A DNA stretch of 64,000 nt, from NCBI RefSeq assembly GCF_008065135.1, contig NZ_CP042914.1:5809404-5873403 (forward strand), read 5' to 3'. Both the position numbers and the translations under genes were made by a program. Numbering within the stretch: position 1 is the first letter of the stretch; the number at the start of each line of letters is the position of its first letter. This document shows positions 6,727 through 63,232 of this stretch, one piece after another. The notes beneath the pieces are model-generated. The model worked only from the letters and a program-made list of their open reading frames with translations. It was not told the origin of the DNA and did not search any database. Source of the stretch: Roseimaritima ulvae. GTDB taxonomy: Bacteria > Planctomycetota > Planctomycetia > Pirellulales > Pirellulaceae.

Positions 6727-9429
6727 ATGCAGCCCAAGGAAGTGGCTGCGTTTGCTTCGTCCCGCACAGGAATTGCTGCGATGAAACGCTTGGGCGTTAA
6801 ACTAGCCGGTGGAGCCGGCGTCGTACTATTAGGGGTTCTGGCAGCCGCTCAGGCCCAGAAAGATCCTTCGACTTCGACCGCCGAGTTGGAACGCGAGCTG
6901 ATCGCCAACCAACCGGCCGCTCCCATCGCGGCGATCAACGAAGAACCCTGGGATTCCGAGTCGACGATTTATCGCGGCAACGATCCGGCGCCCGGCGTGC
7001 CCGACGCCGCCGCCTCGCCAGGCTTTCCGTCTGCCGCGCCGACGAACCCCGCTGAAGACTATCCCGCGGCGGCTGGACCGGCGACCATCCAATTGGCCGC
7101 CCATGAGGCGCCCGTGACGGAATCACCTGCTGCCGACGTGCATCCCGATTTCCCTATGACCTCGCCCCCCGATGCGGCCGCTCAGCCCGTCCCGACGGGA
7201 GCCGAAATGCAAGCCGGCCCGGGCCTTGCCATGCCGCTTGGCGAGGCCGCCACCAGCCCCGACGCCGCCGCCGCTTCGGGCCCCGCCATGGCATTTCCCG
7301 GTTCCTTCCCCGGTGAAGCGCCCGCACCAACCGAAAACACGGCTCCCGCCGCCGCGGACTCAGCCAGCATGCCCGAGCTGGACATGTCCGCCGAAGCTCC
7401 CGGCAGCAACGCCCTGACCACGCCCAACGTGCTGCGAGGCGAAGTCTCGATGCAGGATATCTCCGCCCCCGAAGCGGAAAACGCCGCCGAGATGTCGGCC
7501 GCAGCGATAGCGCCGGAGACGTCAGCCGAAGCCCCACCAGCGACCGTCGCTGCGCCCCAAGCCGCCACCTTGGCCGCTCCCACCGCTGCCGACGATTCCG
7601 CCTATCAATTCCAAGCCGCCGAAATGCGGACCGTCCCGGCGATGCCCGAAACCGATCCCCTCGCCGCAGCCGCCCCCGAAGCCATGGCGCCTGCCACAAC
7701 GATGCCCGCAGCCGTCATGGCCGAAACGCAACCCGCCCCGCCTCCGCAAGCCAACGCAGCCTTCCCAGCCGCGGCGAACGATCCACCTTCGTTGGCCGGC
7801 AACAGCGTGCCAGCCGGCGGCGTCCAGTCGCCCACAGCAGTCGCGTTCCCCGCTCAATTACCGGCTGCTCAACCACCGGCTGCTCAACCCGCCATGGCAC
7901 CGCAAAGCACCGCGGCGCCCCAGGGCTTCCCCGCAGCCGCGCCCCAGCCCATCGCCGCGGCACAGCCCCAAGCGGCTCCGGCGATCGGACGCATCGCCTC
8001 GCGTGACACCACTTCGCTGCCGGCGATGGAAAATGTCATGGGACAGCCCGGCGACCGTCGCTGGGAGGGAGCTCAGGCGCCCAGCGTGTTGATTCACAAA
8101 CGAGCTCCCGAAGAAGTCAAAGTCGGCAAGCCGGCGACCTTCGTGATCGACGTCCGTAATGTCGGTACCACCGATGCCTACAACGTTCAGGTTCACGACA
8201 AGGTTCCCGATGGAATGCGTTTGGTCGATGCCATGCCGCAACCCACCGGCACCGCCGATGCATTGACTTGGTCGCTGGGTGGACTGGAACCGGGCGGCGA
8301 GCGTTCGATCACGATGCAATTGATTCCCGAAACCGAAGGCGAACTTGGCAGCGTGGCACGCGTCACCTTCGAAGCCGCCGCCTCGGTGCGAACCATCGCC
8401 ACCCGTCCCGAACTGCGTATCCGTCAACGGGCTCCCGAACGTGTGCTGATCGGCCAACAGTTGGAGCTGGAAATCAGCATCGAAAACGTGGGTACCGGAA
8501 CCGCCACCGGCGTCGTGTTGCAAGAAGATGTCCCCGAAGGTCTGGAACACCCCAAGGGCCGCCAGCTGGACAACCTGCTGGGCGATCTGGGCCCCGGCGA
8601 AACCCGCACCCAGATCCTGCGACTGCGAGCCACCGCGGCCGGCAACGTCCAGAACGTGGTCCGGCTGATCAGCGATGACAACCTCAGCGCCGAAGACGCC
8701 GTGGCCGTGGAAGTCGTGGCCCCGCAAATTGCGCTGGAACTGCAAGGCCCCTCGAAGCGATTCTTGGAACGCCCCGCGACCTACAATATCGCCCTGGCCA
8801 ACACCGGTACGGCCAACGCCACGAACGTCGAACTTGTGGCTTACCTCGATCGCGGCTTCAGCTTCGTCAGCACCGAACACGAAGGCCAGTATGATCCTTC
8901 GCGTCACGCCATCTATTGGTCGCTAGCCGAACTGCCGACCGGAGCCAATGGCACCGTGCCGCTGACGCTGCTGCCGGTTGAAGAAGGCGAACAAGCGGTC
9001 CGTCTGGAAGTCACCGGCGACCTGGGTGTCCGTGAGAAAAACGAAAAATTGGTGCTCATCGATACGCTGGCCGAACTGTCGTTCTCGGTGGCCGACGATC
9101 AAGACCCCGTGGAAACCGGCAGCGAAACGACCTACGAAATCCGTGTGACTAACAGCGGATCGCGTGGCGACACCAACGTCCAGCTGAAAGTCCAATTGCC
9201 GCCTCAACTGGAGCTGGTCAGCGCCGACCGCAATGCCGGCACCGACGGCCGAGGTCTGGTCGCCTTCGAACCGCTGCCGCGCCTGACCTCGCAACATGAA
9301 GAGGTCTATCGACTGCGGGTTCGCGGCAACACGCCAGGCACGCACAAGATCCAAGCGATCTTGACCAGCGATCAGTCCACCGTCCCGGTGACCAAAGAAG
9401 AGAGCACCACGGTCTACAGCGATCAGTAG
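6727..9429 (+). CDS. Large exported protein with four DUF11-like repeats
   Basis: A 900-residue protein. The N-terminus contains a hydrophobic signal-like helix (VKLAGGAGVVLLGVLAAAQA); the true start may be ATG 6781, giving MKRLGVKLAGG. Residues about 30-440 are a low-complexity Ala/Pro/Glu/Met region, probably an unstructured stalk. From about 447 to the end there are four DUF11-type immunoglobulin-like units of roughly 110 residues, each with the theme FVIDVRNVGTTDAYNVQVHD and VPDGMRLV. DUF11 repeats are frequent in planctomycete surface and cell-wall proteins; adhesion or envelope structure is an inference. No C-terminal anchor is seen. Stands alone, with REP-like hairpins immediately downstream. 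Confidence 0.85.
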   Translation: MQPKEVAAFASSRTGIAAMKRLGVKLAGGAGVVLLGVLAAAQAQKDPSTSTAELERELIANQPAAPIAAINEEPWDSESTIYRGNDPAPGVPDAAASPGFPSAAPTNPAEDYPAAAGPATIQLAAHEAPVTESPAADVHPDFPMTSPPDAAAQPVPTGAEMQAGPGLAMPLGEAATSPDAAAASGPAMAFPGSFPGEAPAPTENTAPAAADSASMPELDMSAEAPGSNALTTPNVLRGEVSMQDISAPEAENAAEMSAAAIAPETSAEAPPATVAAPQAATLAAPTAADDSAYQFQAAEMRTVPAMPETDPLAAAAPEAMAPATTMPAAVMAETQPAPPPQANAAFPAAANDPPSLAGNSVPAGGVQSPTAVAFPAQLPAAQPPAAQPAMAPQSTAAPQGFPAAAPQPIAAAQPQAAPAIGRIASRDTTSLPAMENVMGQPGDRRWEGAQAPSVLIHKRAPEEVKVGKPATFVIDVRNVGTTDAYNVQVHDKVPDGMRLVDAMPQPTGTADALTWSLGGLEPGGERSITMQLIPETEGELGSVARVTFEAAASVRTIATRPELRIRQRAPERVLIGQQLELEISIENVGTGTATGVVLQEDVPEGLEHPKGRQLDNLLGDLGPGETRTQILRLRATAAGNVQNVVRLISDDNLSAEDAVAVEVVAPQIALELQGPSKRFLERPATYNIALANTGTANATNVELVAYLDRGFSFVSTEHEGQYDPSRHAIYWSLAELPTGANGTVPLTLLPVEEGEQAVRLEVTGDLGVREKNEKLVLIDTLAELSFSVADDQDPVETGSETTYEIRVTNSGSRGDTNVQLKVQLPPQLELVSADRNAGTDGRGLVAFEPLPRLTSQHEEVYRLRVRGNTPGTHKIQAILTSDQSTVPVTKEESTTVYSDQ

Positions 9430-9457
9430 GCGTTCGAAGTCCCTCGACCGCAGCTAC

Positions 9458-9578
9458 GTAGCTACGCTCGCCAGAGCGTGGGCAGCTGCGACGCAAAGCC
9501 CTCCGTCCCACCGTCTGGCGACGGTAGCTACGATGCGCCCTCTACTCCACGGTCCAAACTCTGGCGAGTTCGGCTACG
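9458..9578. repeat. Cluster of three REP-like TGGC-loop hairpins
   Basis: Three 24-25 bp elements at 9458-9481 (minus orientation, stem CGCTC/GAGCG), 9508-9532 (stem CCGTC/GACGG) and 9554-9578 (stem AACTC/GAGTT). All share the loop TGGC (GCCA in the opposite orientation) and a GCTAC tail. Further copies are at 23419, 23460, 34734-34877, 47119 and 48082. They lie between the DUF11 gene and the PSD1-type gene. Confidence 0.85.
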
Positions 9579-9613
9579 GTGCGCTGTTCTCACCCCTCCC
9601 GCTGACGATTGAG

Positions 9614-9623
9614 TTAGAATGGG
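9614..9623 (+). promoter_or_regulatory. Possible -10-like motif TTAGAATGGG
   Basis: TTAGAATGGG ends three bases before the ATG of the cytochrome-type gene at 9627, and the identical 10-mer occurs at 21937-21946 upstream of the sulfatase. The centre resembles a -10 box, and its closeness to the start would imply a near-leaderless mRNA. No convincing -35 was seen. Confidence 0.3.
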
Positions 9624-9626
9624 AGC

Positions 9627-12600
9627 ATGTTGAAGCCCACCTGTTATCTCGCCGTCCTGTGTCTGTTTTCGCTGCCGTTTTCCCCCGCCCGGGCGGACGA
9701 CGAAGTCGACTTTAATGCCGACGTTCGCCCCATCCTGGCGACGCATTGTTTTAAATGCCACGGCCCCGATGAGGGGACCCGCGAAGCCGATCTGCGGGTC
9801 GATACCTTTGCCGCCGCGACCGCGGATCGGGGCGGTTATGCGGCGATCGTGCCCGGACACCCGGCTGACAGCGAATTGCTGCAGCGTGTGAGCAGTGACG
9901 ATCCTGACCTGCGGATGCCGCCGCCGGAGGAATCCGGGGGTTTGACCGCGGCGGAAGTCCAAACCCTGACACGTTGGATAGAGTCGGGCGCGGAGTACCA
10001 GAAACATTGGTCGCTGGTTCCGCCGGTCGCGCCCGTCGTACCTGCACGTGTCGAGTCCTTTTCGGCTCGCACGCGTTCGGCCATTGACCGCTTTGTCCAG
10101 ACTCGTCTGCACGACAAGACCGCTTTGCATCCCGCGCCGCCGGCCGACCGCTACACCTTGGTTCGCCGCCTGTATTTGGATCTAACCGGCTTGCCTCCCA
10201 CCCCCGAGCAGGCCGACGCGTTTGTCCACGATGACGATCCGATGGCCTATGTTCGCCTGGTCGATCGCTTGCTGGCCTCGCCAAGTTTTGCGGAAAACAT
10301 CACCCAACCCTGGCTGGATCTGGCTCGCTACGCCGACACCAACGGCTACGAAAAAGATCGCCCGCGAACCATTTGGCCGTACCGCGACTGGGTTTTACAC
10401 GCCCTGGCCAACGACATGCCCTTCGATCAATTTTCGACGGAACAATTGGCCGGCGATATGTTGCCCGGCGCCACCAACGCACAACGCATCGCTACCGGCT
10501 TTCATCGCAATACGATGCTGAACGAAGAAGGCGGTATCGATCCGCTGGAGTTCCGCTTCCAAGCCATGGTCGATCGAGTGGCCACGACCGGCACGGTTTG
10601 GCTGGGGCTGACCACCGGCTGTGCTCAATGCCATACCCACAAGTACGACCCCATTACGCACACCGACTACTACGCCTTGATGGCGCTGTTAAACAACGCC
10701 GACGAACCCGAAGTGGTGGTTGAAGATCCGGCCATCGAACGTCGGCAGCAACAGATCGATCGACAGATCGACCAGCGAGAATCGCAACTGGTCGAACAAT
10801 TTTTGCCGGACATGGCGGCCGTGCTGGAAGCTTGGCGGACACGGCCCCCAGGCGACGACGCGTTTGTGGGACCGCCCACCGAACAGCAGACGATTGACGC
10901 GGCTTTCCAAGCTTGGCTGGACGAACAATTCGTCGCCGCCGTGCTCTGGCAGGTCCTGCCGCCGGAAAGCATGCGGTCCACGATGCCGCGTCTGGAAGCC
11001 TTGCCCGATGGTTCGATCCTGGCCAGCGGCGACGTCACCAAACGCGATGTCTACCGTGTCCGTTTTGACTTGCAGCACCCCACCACGGCGCTGCGGTTGG
11101 AAGTCTTGCCACATGACAGCCTGCCGGCCGGCGGTCCCGGGATGGCTTACTACGAAGGGCGGCGAGGCGATTTCTTTCTGAGCGAATGGCGGGTGACCTT
11201 CAACGGAAAACCGGTTCCATTGCACGTCGCTTCGCACGATTACGGCAAGATCAGCGTGGGTTCCGGCGATCCGGCGGCGGCATCGGTACTCGACGGCGAC
11301 GGTTCAACCGGTTGGTCGACTTCGGGACGCGAAGGTCAAGCCAGCCAGTTGGTCGTCAACCTGGTAACGCCGCTGAGCGAACCGGGAGAGTTGGAGATTG
11401 AGCTGCTGTTCGAACGCCACTTCGCCGCCGCACTGGGACGATTCCGAGTGTCCGCGGCACAAACCTGCGGTCCCACCACAGCCTCTCCATTGCCGGCCGA
11501 CGTCGTGCAAGCCATCGCGGCTTGGGACCGCGACCAACAGCCGGATACGATCCCTTGTTTCGAACAACTCCGACGCCATTTTTTGCGGACTTCGCCCTTG
11601 CTGCGATCACGGTACGCGGCGGTCGAGAGGCTGCAGAAGCAACGTCCGAAGTTTGTGCGTTCGCTCGCCTTCCAGCAACGCGGGGCGGACCACACGCGGC
11701 CCACGTTTCGCCATCACCGAGGCGAGTACCTGCAACCTCGGGAACAGGTACAACCAGATATCCCGGAAGTTTTCGGGGGTCTACCCCCCGATTCACCTCG
11801 CGATCGTTTGGCCCTGGCGCGTTGGTTGGTCAGCGAACAAAACCCACTAGTTGGCCGCGTGGTGGTGAACCGCGTTTGGCGTGCCCTGTTCGGCTATGGC
11901 ATCGTGCGTACCGACGGGGATTTTGGGACGCAGTCCGAACCGCCTTCGCACCCAGAACTGTTGGACCATCTGGCCACCGAATGGATGCGACATGATTGGT
12001 CGATGAAATGGCTGTATCGCACGATCGTGTTAACGGCTACCTACCAACAAGCCTCCGCGCGCAGCGGTGACGCCGATCCTGAAAATCGCTGGCTCGCTCG
12101 CGGCGCCCGCGTGCGGTTGCCGGCCGAAACGATTCGCGACCAGTTTCTGGCTGCCAGTACGCGTCTGACACGTACCTTCGGCGGCCCCAGCGTGCGGCCG
12201 CCGCAACTGGCCGCCGTTACCCAGATCGCTTATGGCAATCCCGGTTGGCCCACGTCCAGCGGCGGGGATCGCTATCGGCGCAGCTTATACACCTTTCAAA
12301 AGCGCACCGCGCCCTTTGCCGCGCTGACGGTGTTTGACGCTCCCTCACGCGAAGCCTGTATCGCACGACGGCAGCGCAGCGATACGCCGCTGCAAGCCCT
12401 GACATTATTGAACGACGAAATGTTCATCGAACTGGCGCGACATCTTGCCGAACGGACTTACCGCGACGACCTGCCCCCCGCAGCGATCGCCAATCAGTTA
12501 TTTCGAACCATATTGATTCGTCCGCCAACTCCCGACGAGCAGGCTTCGCTGTTGGAGTTTTACGAACAACAGCGGGAGCAAGGTCTCGCGCCGCAACAGG

Positions 12601-12659
12601 CCTTCTTTCTACTCACCCGCGCCCTCATGAACACCGACGAAGCGATCACCAGGCCCTGA
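9627..12659 (+). CDS. PSD1-type planctomycete cytochrome C / DUF1549 / DUF1553 protein
   Basis: A 1010-residue exported protein with a clear signal peptide (CYLAVLCLFSLPFSPARA). Residues about 25-110 form the planctomycete cytochrome C domain with one c-type haem motif, CFKCH, near residue 46. DUF1549 follows at about 150-370 (starting SAIDRFVQTRLHDK, with NGYEKDRPRTIWPYRDW), a central variable region at about 400-680, then DUF1553 at about 700-960 (LARWLVSEQNPLVGRVVVNR). This architecture is almost confined to Planctomycetes and Verrucomicrobia and is usually paired with a DUF1501 gene, as here 6 bases downstream. The biochemical role is unproven; a link to polysaccharide degradation has been suggested. 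The haem and signal imply a periplasmic location. Confidence 0.95.
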   Translation: MLKPTCYLAVLCLFSLPFSPARADDEVDFNADVRPILATHCFKCHGPDEGTREADLRVDTFAAATADRGGYAAIVPGHPADSELLQRVSSDDPDLRMPPPEESGGLTAAEVQTLTRWIESGAEYQKHWSLVPPVAPVVPARVESFSARTRSAIDRFVQTRLHDKTALHPAPPADRYTLVRRLYLDLTGLPPTPEQADAFVHDDDPMAYVRLVDRLLASPSFAENITQPWLDLARYADTNGYEKDRPRTIWPYRDWVLHALANDMPFDQFSTEQLAGDMLPGATNAQRIATGFHRNTMLNEEGGIDPLEFRFQAMVDRVATTGTVWLGLTTGCAQCHTHKYDPITHTDYYALMALLNNADEPEVVVEDPAIERRQQQIDRQIDQRESQLVEQFLPDMAAVLEAWRTRPPGDDAFVGPPTEQQTIDAAFQAWLDEQFVAAVLWQVLPPESMRSTMPRLEALPDGSILASGDVTKRDVYRVRFDLQHPTTALRLEVLPHDSLPAGGPGMAYYEGRRGDFFLSEWRVTFNGKPVPLHVASHDYGKISVGSGDPAAASVLDGDGSTGWSTSGREGQASQLVVNLVTPLSEPGELEIELLFERHFAAALGRFRVSAAQTCGPTTASPLPADVVQAIAAWDRDQQPDTIPCFEQLRRHFLRTSPLLRSRYAAVERLQKQRPKFVRSLAFQQRGADHTRPTFRHHRGEYLQPREQVQPDIPEVFGGLPPDSPRDRLALARWLVSEQNPLVGRVVVNRVWRALFGYGIVRTDGDFGTQSEPPSHPELLDHLATEWMRHDWSMKWLYRTIVLTATYQQASARSGDADPENRWLARGARVRLPAETIRDQFLAASTRLTRTFGGPSVRPPQLAAVTQIAYGNPGWPTSSGGDRYRRSLYTFQKRTAPFAALTVFDAPSREACIARRQRSDTPLQALTLLNDEMFIELARHLAERTYRDDLPPAAIANQLFRTILIRPPTPDEQASLLEFYEQQREQGLAPQQAFFLLTRALMNTDEAITRP

Positions 12660-19984: not shown

Positions 19985-20379
19985 ACCCCATCCTCGGAAA
20001 CCGGTTCGGTGTGAAGGTCAATGTAGGGGCGTGATTATAGAACCTGGCGCCGCAATATCCAGCTTTCAGCGAAATAAGGGACCGCAACCATGGGCTGGTA
20101 AGTCTAATGGCATCTACATCGGCGTCAGGGGTTCCGTGACGCGAAATCGCAGTGCAGTCGCACAGCAGGTTTCAGCCGCGCAGCGGCGGCATCATGTAGC
20201 CATGGGCGCGAGCCCATGGACCCGGTGACACAAGCATGCGCCAAGTCCCAACGGGAGGACATAAGTTTGGGGCCGCCGAGGACTGCTGTCGCTCCGTTGG
20301 GGCTTGGCACGAGTGGACGTCCCCCAACCATGGGCTGGCGCCCATGGCTACATGCCGTCGTCCCTTCGGGACTTAAGAA
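19985..20379. other. Gene-free stretch with promoter-like box and repeat
   Basis: About 395 bases. Near the C45 gene, TATAAT is present on the minus strand at 20034-20039, 50 bases before its start, without a convincing -35. The rest is occupied by the TTTCAGCCGCG repeat described separately and a short unexplained segment at 20050-20160. Confidence 0.55.
20167..20372. repeat. TTTCAGCCGCG / CCCAACGGG composite repeat, copy A
   Basis: Begins AGGTTTCAGCCGCG, then GCCATGGGC...GCCCATGG (hairpin), CAAGTCCCAACGGG, GACATAAGTTTGGGG and ends with an inverted part (CCATGGGCTGGCGCCCATGG). The first 130 bases match 40440-40570 with few changes, and the hairpin end recurs inverted at 63097-63144. No coding function is seen. 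Confidence 0.8.
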
Positions 20380-23392: not shown

Positions 23393-23418
23393 TGCTGTGG
23401 TCCGCTTAGAAATTAGGA

Positions 23419-23484
23419 TAGCGGATCTCGCCAGAGATTGGATCGGGGCGGAAAAAGGTCCAAAGTCTGGCGACTTCGGCTACG
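23419..23484. repeat. Inverted pair of REP-like TGGC-loop hairpins
   Basis: Element 1 at 23419-23441 (stem ATCTC/GAGAT, loop GCCA) and element 2 at 23460-23484 (stem AAGTC/GACTT, loop TGGC) face each other across 18 bases. Both carry the family's GCTA(C) end. They lie between the convergent sulfatase and DUF900 genes, a position where such hairpins could terminate or stabilise both transcripts. Confidence 0.85.
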
Positions 23485-34712: not shown

Positions 34713-34877
34713 GTAGCGACGCTCGCGATCCCCGTAGATACGCTCGCCAGAGCGTGGTCCTCCCCCGTAGCGACGCTCGCCAGAGCGTGGACCTCTCCCG
34801 TAGCGACGCTCGCCACAGCGTGGAACCGCCGGGCGCCGCCTCCCTCAGCGTCCCACCGTCTGGCGACGGTAGCTACG
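34713..34877. repeat. Array of REP-like TGGC-loop hairpins
   Basis: Four elements at 34734-34757, 34767-34790, 34800-34823 (GCCA loop orientation, stem CGCTC/GAGCG; the last has a C-C mismatch at the top pair) and 34853-34877 (opposite orientation, stem CCGTC/GACGG), preceded by a truncated start at 34713-34726. Spacing between the first three is regular at 33 bases. Lies between secDF and cdsA. Confidence 0.85.
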
Positions 34878-47118: not shown

Positions 47119-47143
47119 CGTAGCTACCGTCGCCAGACGGTGG
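47119..47143 (-). repeat. REP-like TGGC-loop hairpin (stem CCGTC/GACGG)
   Basis: Single copy in the GCCA orientation upstream of the DUF374 gene, with the GTAGCTA tail and stem CCGTC/GACGG identical to 9508-9532 and 34853-34877. Confidence 0.85.
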
Positions 47144-48081: not shown

Positions 48082-48138
48082 CCAAACTCTGGCGAGTTCG
48101 GCTACGAGACGGCTACGAGACGGCTACGAGACGGCTAC
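48082..48138 (+). repeat. REP-like hairpin with 11-bp tandem tail
   Basis: The hairpin at 48082-48106 has stem AACTC/GAGTT and loop TGGC. Its tail is expanded into three consecutive CGGCTACGAGA units and a partial fourth (48099-48138), which is unique among the copies in this window. Confidence 0.85.
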
Positions 48139-54733: not shown

Positions 54734-54792
54734 GTAGCATGACTCTCCGAGTCGTGCAGTCCGCAGCCACACGGGCCAGGGGCCCATGCTAC
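54734..54792. repeat. GTAGCATG...CATGCTAC inverted repeat between convergent genes
   Basis: Outer arms GTAGCATG (54734-54741) and CATGCTAC (54785-54792), with an inner hairpin GCATGACTC-TCC-GAGTCGTGC on the left. The right arm GGGGCCCATGCTAC is the same sequence as in 15167-15301. Confidence 0.7.
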
Positions 54793-63096: not shown

Positions 63097-63232
63097 CCAC
63101 GGGCTCGCGCCCGTGGCTACATCATGCCGCCGCTTCGCGGCTGATGCTCGCGTCGATGGGGACCGCGACCTCGGCGAGAGCTACGCTCCAGGCCCGGAGG
63201 GCCGATACAATCTCTGCCGGGGGTGTGAACCC
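63097..63232. repeat. Mixed repeats upstream of the IS4 gene
   Basis: 63097-63144 is an inverted copy of the CCATGGGC/TTTCAGCCGCG hairpin end (CACGGGCTCGCGCCCGTGG, then GCCGCCGCTTCGCGGCTGA). 63191-63232 matches the 53681 family. No coding content is claimed. Confidence 0.7.

What the first reader, a model, noticed from the sequence alone, without database searches (positions are those of the whole stretch)
9458..9578. REP-like hairpin family with covarying stems and an invariant TGGC loop
Eleven copies in the window share the layout CCA-stem-TGGC-stem-xxGCTACG. Five different stems occur and each keeps its pairing: CGCTC/GAGCG, CCGTC/GACGG, AACTC/GAGTT, AAGTC/GACTT and ATCTC/GAGAT. Changes on one arm are matched on the other, which argues for selection on the hairpin in DNA or RNA form, while the loop and GCTAC tail stay fixed. 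I do not recall this family being described; it may be a planctomycete REP element.
Basis: seen in the sequence. Interest (0 to 1): 0.75.

Follow-up and report, generated by a model that had tools for sequence, protein, structure and literature searches.

The report
Orphan GTAG repeat family in Roseimaritima
The hairpins are a very abundant family of short repeats (REPs), a kind of mobile DNA already known in bacteria; they often sit as pairs of two unlike hairpins, and none of the transposase genes examined is flanked by them.

Summary
The window holds 11 copies and the 8.2-Mb genome 1231 strict-pattern copies against 17 for the reversed pattern. Read on the other strand each is 5'-GTAGC-TA/CG-5 bp stem-GCCA-stem-TGG: a REP of the published GTAG super-family (PMC3733652), not an unknown kind. 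The covariation needs re-reading. Stems fall into six main types. Within 247 copies, stem changes hit one arm 27 times and both arms once, so pairing is kept when new types are founded or copied, not at each resident copy. Most copies lie between genes. Many form inverted dimers with GTAG ends outward (248 by strict pattern). In 93 of the 97 dimers listed the halves carry stems of two opposite classes; shuffles average 49. One relative breaks this rule with homodimers. Of 13 Y1_Tnp matches in the genome and 140 stretches around such matches in 22 others, none is flanked on both sides by this family. So the mobilising enzyme is inferred, not shown. Side result: Rfam's 'Acido-Lenti-1 RNA' looks like the same kind of element.

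The parts
9457..9481 (-). family A REP, stem CGCTC/GAGCG, linker TA; left half of a feet-out heterodimer with 9508-9532
   Evidence: 0 mismatches to the type consensus
9508..9532 (+). family A REP, stem CCGTC/GACGG, linker TA; right half of the heterodimer
   Evidence: 0 mismatches
9554..9578 (+). family A REP, stem AACTC/GAGTT, linker CG; in tandem behind the dimer
   Evidence: 0 mismatches
23417..23441 (-). family A REP, stem ATCTC/GAGAT, 3 mismatches; heterodimer with 23460-23484 between convergent sulfatase and DUF900 genes
23460..23484 (+). family A REP, stem AAGTC/GACTT
   Evidence: 0 mismatches
34733..34757 (-). family A REP, stem CGCTC, 1 mismatch (foot)
34766..34790 (-). family A REP, stem CGCTC, 1 mismatch (linker)
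34799..34823 (-). family A REP, stem CGCTG/GAGCG (one pair broken), 2 mismatches; heterodimer with 34853-34877
34853..34877 (+). family A REP, stem CCGTC
   Evidence: 0 mismatches
47119..47143 (-). family A REP, stem CCGTC, single, between divergent genes
   Evidence: 0 mismatches
48082..48106 (+). family A REP, stem AACTC, single
   Evidence: 0 mismatches
20174..20219 (-). related GTAG element (family E), left half of an inverted pair; matches Rfam RF01687 Acido-Lenti-1
   Evidence: 45.8 bits, gathering 37
20328..20373 (+). related GTAG element (family E), right half of the inverted pair; matches RF01687
   Evidence: 45.7 bits
63097..63142 (+). related element, matches RF01687
   Evidence: 49.5 bits
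54734..54753 (-). GTAG REP of family C, the type that flanks transposase RAYT11 elsewhere in the genome
47943..47962 (-). GTAG REP of family B (GTAGCATGGGCC type)
54773..54792 (+). GTAG REP of family B

Best explanation
A family of GTAG-type REPs whose mobile unit is likely a REPIN-like inverted dimer of about 50-80 bp. Proposed mechanism: a Y1 (HUH) transposase acting in trans binds the elements as single-stranded hairpins, reading the GTAGC foot and the hairpin/loop rather than the stem letters, and spreads them into gaps between genes. A new stem type can found a lineage only if both arms match; after insertion each copy decays with no visible repair of pairing. The two halves usually carry stems from opposite classes, which keeps the unit from being a 25-bp perfect palindrome. 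Shown: copy number, anatomy, intergenic placement, dimers, opposite-class rule in the listed part of this genome, pattern of decay. Inferred: mobility, enzyme and the reason for the opposite classes.
For: 1231 copies against 17 in control. GTAGC foot with hairpin: in a GTAG-hairpin scan of the 1.2-Mb sample most of the 397 hits fall into a few recurrent families, whereas the GATG control foot gave 249 hits and no sequence more than once. 106 of 117 clusters intergenic, 5 genic, 6 at sample edges; 82% of random positions genic; convergent gaps hold 37 clusters for 109 such gaps, codirectional 52 for 374, divergent 17 for 129. Of 100 neighbouring pairs within 250 bp 57 have feet out, 28 are tandem, 15 feet in, one array of ten dimers included. 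248 strict dimers. Opposite classes in 93 of the 97 dimers listed, shuffle mean 49, largest 67 in 20,000; in the sample, arrays collapsed, 29 of 32, shuffle mean 16, largest 25 in 10,000. Private stem changes: 27 one-arm, 1 two-arm. Thirteen Y1_Tnp matches in the genome, several between their own palindromes, show that REP/RAYT-type machinery is present.
Against: No Y1 transposase gene examined is flanked on both sides by this family, and the high-count genomes do not share a RAYT class: G078 has only an R1-like gene with an internal stop and an R9-like gene, G171 has R2-, R3-, R4- and R13-like genes. No empty site was found (inconclusive). The opposite-class rule fails in G053, which keeps homodimers; an SbcD-like gene, below the curated cut-off, is found there as in the other five genomes searched, so this does not explain the difference. 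The long hairpin stays the predicted fold of 29 of 31 heterodimers, with much less advantage.
Confidence: 0.75

Rival explanations
1. A host-level RNA element (mRNA 3'-end stabiliser or terminator-like hairpin) selected at each locus.
For: Intergenic, with about twice the share of convergent gaps expected from random intergenic positions (37 of 106 clusters against 518 of 3258 positions); hairpins could form in RNA.
Against: Stem changes in single copies are not compensated: 27 one-arm, 1 two-arm. Strict-pattern counts run from 0 to 1231 across 199 genomes of the family. No Rfam match of the finding's stretch up to E=5.
Confidence: 0.1
2. A DNA binding site, such as a gyrase or nucleoid-protein site (BIME-like function), kept for chromosome structure.
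For: High number and placement between genes fit; Di Nocera et al. recall gyrase binding of E. coli REPs (PMC3733652).
Against: Congeners differ widely in number: 1231 here, 343 in G083, 80 in G028, 0 in G109 (an 82% complete genome).
Confidence: 0.1
3. A 50-80 bp MITE with imperfect terminal inverted repeats, moved by a DDE transposase rather than by a Y1 enzyme.
For: The dimer has inverted ends; no Y1 gene examined carries it on both sides.
Against: Single and tandem copies occur and each half is a complete foot-plus-hairpin; other repeats with the same GTAGC foot flank Y1 genes, such as family C at RAYT11. Target-site duplications were not tested.
Confidence: 0.08
4. Only segmental or tandem duplication of a few copies, no constraint on pairing.
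For: Tandem arrays exist, for example ten dimers with spacings near 88 bp at L086 15323-16111.
Against: Copies are dispersed over the genome and most listed dimers have unlike spacers; six paired stem types and further paired types in relatives are not explained by copying one sequence.
Confidence: 0.04

Closest known systems
GTAG REP super-family, families GTAG-1 and GTAG-2 (Di Nocera et al. 2013, PMC3733652)
   Same: GTAG foot, a dinucleotide between foot and stem, short stem, 3-nt motif at the other end, feet-out dimers predominant, intergenic; several families in one genome are reported, R. baltica included
   Different: 4-nt GCCA loop and TGG end here; no RAYT found flanked by it. The paper's Figure 1 with the R. 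baltica sequences is not held, so identity could not be tested
REPINs (Bertels and Rainey 2011, PMC3116915; start of abstract seen in a search listing only, otherwise recalled)
   Same: inverted REP pair with feet outward as the likely mobile unit
   Different: two halves of opposite stem class in 93 of 97 listed dimers; most GTAG-1 dimers of P. putida and P. entomophila are homodimers (PMC3733652)
Acido-Lenti-1 RNA, RF01687 (Weinberg et al. 2010, PMC2864571)
   Same: first hairpin has the same geometry: 8-nt arms, 4-nt loop, then CTA; inverted pairs
   Different: has a second hairpin; the finding's stretch gives no RF01687 match
TnpA-Y1 class 1.2 proteins (PMC6006769)
   Same: RAYT1 to RAYT3 carry a Y-motif of the YIxxQxxHH kind given for that class (table; read off the translations)
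   Different: the survey's table lists no REP for class 1.2; here RAYT1-like genes often sit beside RF01687 elements

Membership tests
GTAG REP super-family | GTAG tetranucleotide at one end, next to the hairpin | tested here: met
   Foot GTAGC in the recurrent hairpin families; foot mismatch rate 2.4% per site in 247 copies found by consensus with at most 4 mismatches
GTAG REP super-family | short stem-loop (5-13 bp stem) | tested here: met
   5-bp stem, 4-nt loop; 224 of 247 perfectly paired
GTAG REP super-family | extragenic, interspersed, many copies | tested here: met
   1231 copies; 106 of 117 clusters intergenic, 5 genic, 6 at edges, with a home-made gene finder
GTAG REP super-family | head-head (feet-out) dimers predominant | tested here: met
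   57 of 100 neighbouring pairs
REPtron / RAYT-REPIN system | a Y1 transposase gene flanked by the same REP | tested here: not met
   0 of 13 Y1_Tnp matches of the genome (by eye over 500-bp flanks) and 0 of 140 fetched stretches of 22 other genomes by an exact loop-and-foot pattern; not all listed matches were fetched, some stretches repeat and some end at contig ends
REPtron / RAYT-REPIN system | mobility of the element | tested here: inconclusive
   Downstream side of the sulfatase orthologue not syntenic in two congeners; the joined-flank search showed only matches to neighbouring repeats in the part of the output that was not cut
Acido-Lenti-1 RNA (RF01687) | covariance-model match at gathering score | tested here: not met
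   9380-9660: no match up to E=5
CGTC REP super-family | CGTC tag at one end of the hairpin | tested here: not met
   The end motif is GTAGC

The most novel reading that the evidence does not exclude
Family A is a REPIN population with no transposase of its own in cis: the same foot, loop and geometry are carried in several planctomycete genera, while the resident Y1 enzymes differ from genome to genome. It would be a parasite that several RAYT classes mobilise by reading foot and loop alone, with two opposite stem classes per unit as a device against long-palindrome removal. Rfam's Acido-Lenti-1 'RNA' would be the autonomous cousin, the end of class 1.2 Y1 transposons, and not an RNA gene.
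Probability: 0.3. Interest if true: 0.65.

Novelty: new member of a known kind. Interest (0 to 1): 0.42.

Why it matters
Di Nocera et al. wrote that the preference for heterodimers 'has no obvious explanation' (PMC3733652). Here one genome offers 248 strict dimers, of which the 97 listed follow a clear rule (opposite stem class in 93), and a relative with homodimers offers the contrast, so the question can be tested. The decay pattern also shows how to tell selection on mobilisation from selection on each resident copy: compensation between main types, hardly any within them. If the Acido-Lenti-1 reading holds, a database RNA family used to annotate bacterial genomes should be re-labelled as a mobile DNA element.

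Tried and rejected
Cognate RAYT: all 13 Y1_Tnp matches of the genome were read with 500-bp flanks; several have palindromes of their own, none family A. Near misses: a family A copy 1.1 kb from RAYT13 (L043); L310 has an 8-bp-stem GCCA-loop element about 330 bp from a Y1 gene on one side; L140 and L278 have a family-A-like copy about 1 kb away; L172 has one between two R5-like genes; L144 has a pair about 1.6 kb away.

Candidate by analogy: the RAYT of L168 and the R7-like gene of L150 stand beside GTAGC-GAAACTC / GAAAGTC repeats that resemble family A in stem but have other loops and end in TCG; kept only as a lead. A tblastn of the L168 protein against the RAYT stretches of the own genome gave nothing better than E=0.011.

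Heterodimers as an SbcCD escape: sbcD-like matches, all below the curated cut-off, occur in all six genomes searched, also in G053 with homodimers; not supported as stated. Folding: heterodimers lower the advantage of the long hairpin over local hairpins from -20.4 (made homodimers) to -6.3 kcal/mol on average, but 29 of 31 heterodimers still fold long, so 'prevents the long hairpin' was dropped in favour of 'breaks the perfect palindrome'.

Empty sites: inconclusive (the output was cut).

Hand coding: the dimers's listing (first part of the chromosome, 97 of 248) were coded by hand. My first count (88 of 92, shuffle mean 46, largest 64) left out five rows, three copies of one array and two neighbours of a coded dimer, all of opposite class; the recount with all 97 is. 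The rule in G083 was read by eye, not scripted.

Full report
WHERE IT IS. The window is G000:C1:5809404-5873403 of an 8,212,515-base single-contig genome. The finding lies between a DUF11-domain gene (6727-9429) and a PSCyt1/PSCyt2/PSD1 gene (9627-12659), both on +.

THE OBSERVATION. Eleven copies are in the window with the five stems named; 10 of 11 stems pair fully and the tail differs in two. Chance gives 0.27 matches of the core pattern in the window against 10 seen; one of the 10, at 20336, belongs to a related family. The genome has 1231 strict-pattern copies against 17 for the pattern read backwards.

ANATOMY. On the other strand each copy reads GTAGC - TA or CG - five-base arm - GCCA - five-base arm - TGG. 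Of 197 strict copies in the 1.2-Mb sample 182 have a perfect stem; CGCTC, CCGTC and CCTTC go with linker TA, AAGTC, AACTC and ATCTC with linker CG. With the three end bases the arms are eight bases long and hold one mismatch: A pairs T next to the stem in the TA types, the two C pair two G in the CG types (read from sequence). A scan for hairpins behind GTAG found this family and at least four others with foot GTAGC: B (GTAGCATGGGCC...), C (GTAGC-MT-GACTC-TCY-GAGTC), D (GTAGCCTAGGCT...) and E (GTAGCCAYGGGC-GNCA-GCCCRTGG); a control foot gave 249 hits, no sequence more than once.

COVARIATION. Pairing across copies is far above a shuffle of arms, 224 against 51 of 247, but this comes from six main types. 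Within types, 247 copies with at most four mismatches show 22 broken pairs, 5 G-T pairs and 1 pair changed on both sides, an AATTC copy. Per-site change is 1.2% in the stem, 2.0% in the loop, 2.4% in the foot; the stem rate is biased down because copies are assigned to the nearest type. So there is no excess of compensated change at resident copies. Selection on pairing acts where types are founded or multiplied, which is what a transposition substrate predicts and what a per-locus RNA function does not. Relatives add other paired stems, such as GAATTC in G053.

DIMERS. Of 207 copies in sample and window, 100 neighbouring pairs lie within 250 bp: 57 feet out, 28 tandem, 15 feet in; one array of ten dimers is among them. 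A strict pattern finds 248 feet-out dimers in the genome and none with the pattern reversed. Call stems with C at position 3 (CGCTC, AACTC, ATCTC) class 1 and those with G or T (CCGTC, AAGTC, CCTTC) class 2. Of the 97 dimers that the listing shows, 93 join class 1 with class 2 and one is a homodimer; random joining gives 49 and 20. In the sample, after arrays are collapsed, 29 of 32 join the classes and 2 are homodimers. In G083 the 37 dimers join AAGTC, or a mutated AAGTC, with a different stem (by eye), three of these with AATTC, which would be class 2, so the safer wording there is 'unlike halves'. G198 (another genus, loop GCCAA) also shows unlike halves in the part listed. G053 does not: most of its 55 dimers are GAATTC homodimers. 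DNA folding gives the long hairpin an advantage of 6.3 kcal/mol in 31 heterodimers and 20.4 in made homodimers; 29 of the 31 still fold long. Di Nocera et al. report heterodimers in other GTAG families and propose escape from hairpin-cutting enzymes (PMC3733652, section read). The sbcD search does not separate G053 from the other five genomes.

PLACE. With a home-made gene finder (84% of bases genic), 106 of 117 clusters are intergenic, 5 genic and 6 at edges; convergent gaps are over-represented (37 clusters for 109 gaps; 52 for 374 codirectional; 17 for 129 divergent).

DISTRIBUTION. In 199 genomes of the family strict-pattern totals run from 0 to 1231; high ones are G171 655, G198 517, G182 483, G147 460, G082 416, G078 388, G083 343. 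Many genomes are at the level of the reversed control, and the pattern also catches relatives of the family, such as that of G198. The exact 25-mer of the AAGTC type occurs in 69 stretches of the genome collection, whose titles name planctomycetes (Roseimaritima sediminicola, Fuerstiella, Pirellula, Rubripirellula and unnamed Pirellulaceae, Planctomycetaceae and Planctomycetota).

ENZYME. The genome has 13 Y1_Tnp matches. Several stand between palindromes of their own: RAYT11 between family C dimers, RAYT12 between GTAGGCCGGAAC repeats, RAYT9 between GTAGCCGCAGGC repeats; RAYT1 is followed by a family E array; RAYT4/6/8, 5 and 7 stand between other repeats without a GTAG hairpin (by eye). None has family A within 500 bp; one copy lies 1.1 kb from RAYT13. 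In 22 other genomes (13, 10, of which G201 appears to equal G182) 140 stretches around Y1 matches were searched with an exact loop-and-foot pattern, not all matches listed, some repeated, some cut by contig ends; none has family A on both sides. G078 and G171, both with high counts, share no RAYT class. The enzyme therefore stays open: a resident RAYT in trans is the likeliest, RAYT1 (its family E has the same foot and a GNCA loop) and RAYT11 (family C has the same foot-dinucleotide-5 bp layout) being the best candidates by resemblance only.

ACIDO-LENTI-1. Rfam finds three RF01687 matches in the window. The family was published as 'probably' RNA and probably not cis-regulatory (table in PMC2864571, passage seen). 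Here it behaves like a mobile element: 102 matches in the genome, 86 over the cut-off, of which 23 pairs stand inverted with starts 144-154 bp apart (a few partners are below the cut-off); six such pairs, 135-157 bp apart, are listed for G219. In the phylum 19 of 79 genomes have a match and 15 of 79 one over the cut-off, with 1 to 66 matches each, at most 67 candidates being scored. RF01687 lies 43-224 bp from the Y1 gene in 8 of 20 scanned loci: 8 of the 12 R1-like loci scanned (not L121, L124, L125, L133) and 0 of the 8 R2- or R3-like ones; in only three (L117, L127, L140) is it on both sides. With the density of this genome a random gene would have one within 600 bp with probability about 0.02; densities of the other genomes were not measured. 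Two sub-threshold matches stand on either side of RAYT3. The first hairpin of its consensus has the geometry of family A: 8-nt arms, 4-nt loop, CTA.

LITERATURE. Searches 'REP-associated tyrosine transposase' with 'planctomycet', 'Rhodopirellula' with 'repetitive extragenic palindrom', RAYT/REPIN/Planctomycet, 'Roseimaritima' with 'palindrom', 'repetitive extragenic palindrom' with 'Planctomycet', REPIN/RAYT/orphan and 'Acido-Lenti-1' returned no description of this family, or of Acido-Lenti-1 as a transposon end, in the titles, abstract starts and passages that I saw; of the three papers naming Acido-Lenti-1 I opened one. Of PMC3733652 I saw the abstract, passages, the sections on GTAG families, dimers and tyrosine transposases and the first part of the discussion; of PMC6006769 passages and one section; of PMC2864571 passages. 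Figures and supplements were not available, so the 2013 R. baltica families may include this one.

Noticed in passing
window 20174-20219, 20328-20373, 63097-63142; L044, L114, L115, L117, L127, L130, L140, L320: Rfam RF01687 'Acido-Lenti-1 RNA' has 102 matches in this genome (86 over the cut-off), 23 pairs of them inverted about 150 bp apart, and lies beside class-1.2-like Y1 transposase genes in 8 of 20 loci scanned; it looks like the end of a mobile element rather than an RNA gene.
   Followed up: partly
L047 (G000:C1:4997000-5016900): Three near-identical RAYT-like genes (RAYT4, 6, 8) within 13 kb, two of them shortened, with end sequences GGTGTCAGGAGTC / GACTCCTGACACC (the far end altered at RAYT4): a recently duplicating Y1 element with inverted ends.
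   Followed up: no
L086 15323-16111: Ten CGCTC x CCGTC dimers repeated in tandem with spacings near 88 bp.
   Followed up: no
G053: A relative whose dimers are mostly homodimers of GAATTC stems, while several of its Y1 genes carry other GTAG repeats; a natural contrast for the unlike-halves rule.
   Followed up: partly
L150 1443-1511 and L168 1326-2720: Y1 genes beside GTAGC-GAAAGTC / GAAACTC repeats with loops such as GTCAA or GTGAA; at L150 a heterodimer of AAGTC and AACTC stems like that of family A.
   Followed up: partly
G198: A related family with loop GCCAA and end TCG, with long tandem arrays of heterodimers near G198:C1:849000-853000 and 1723800-1726800.
   Followed up: no
L049 (RAYT9) and L050 (RAYT10): RAYT9 lies among repeats GTAGCCGCAGGCGCCGGCGCGGGGCTGCCGCTAC; RAYT10 among TTAGCGGCACGGCGCAAGCCGTCCGGT-type repeats without a GTAG foot.
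   Followed up: no
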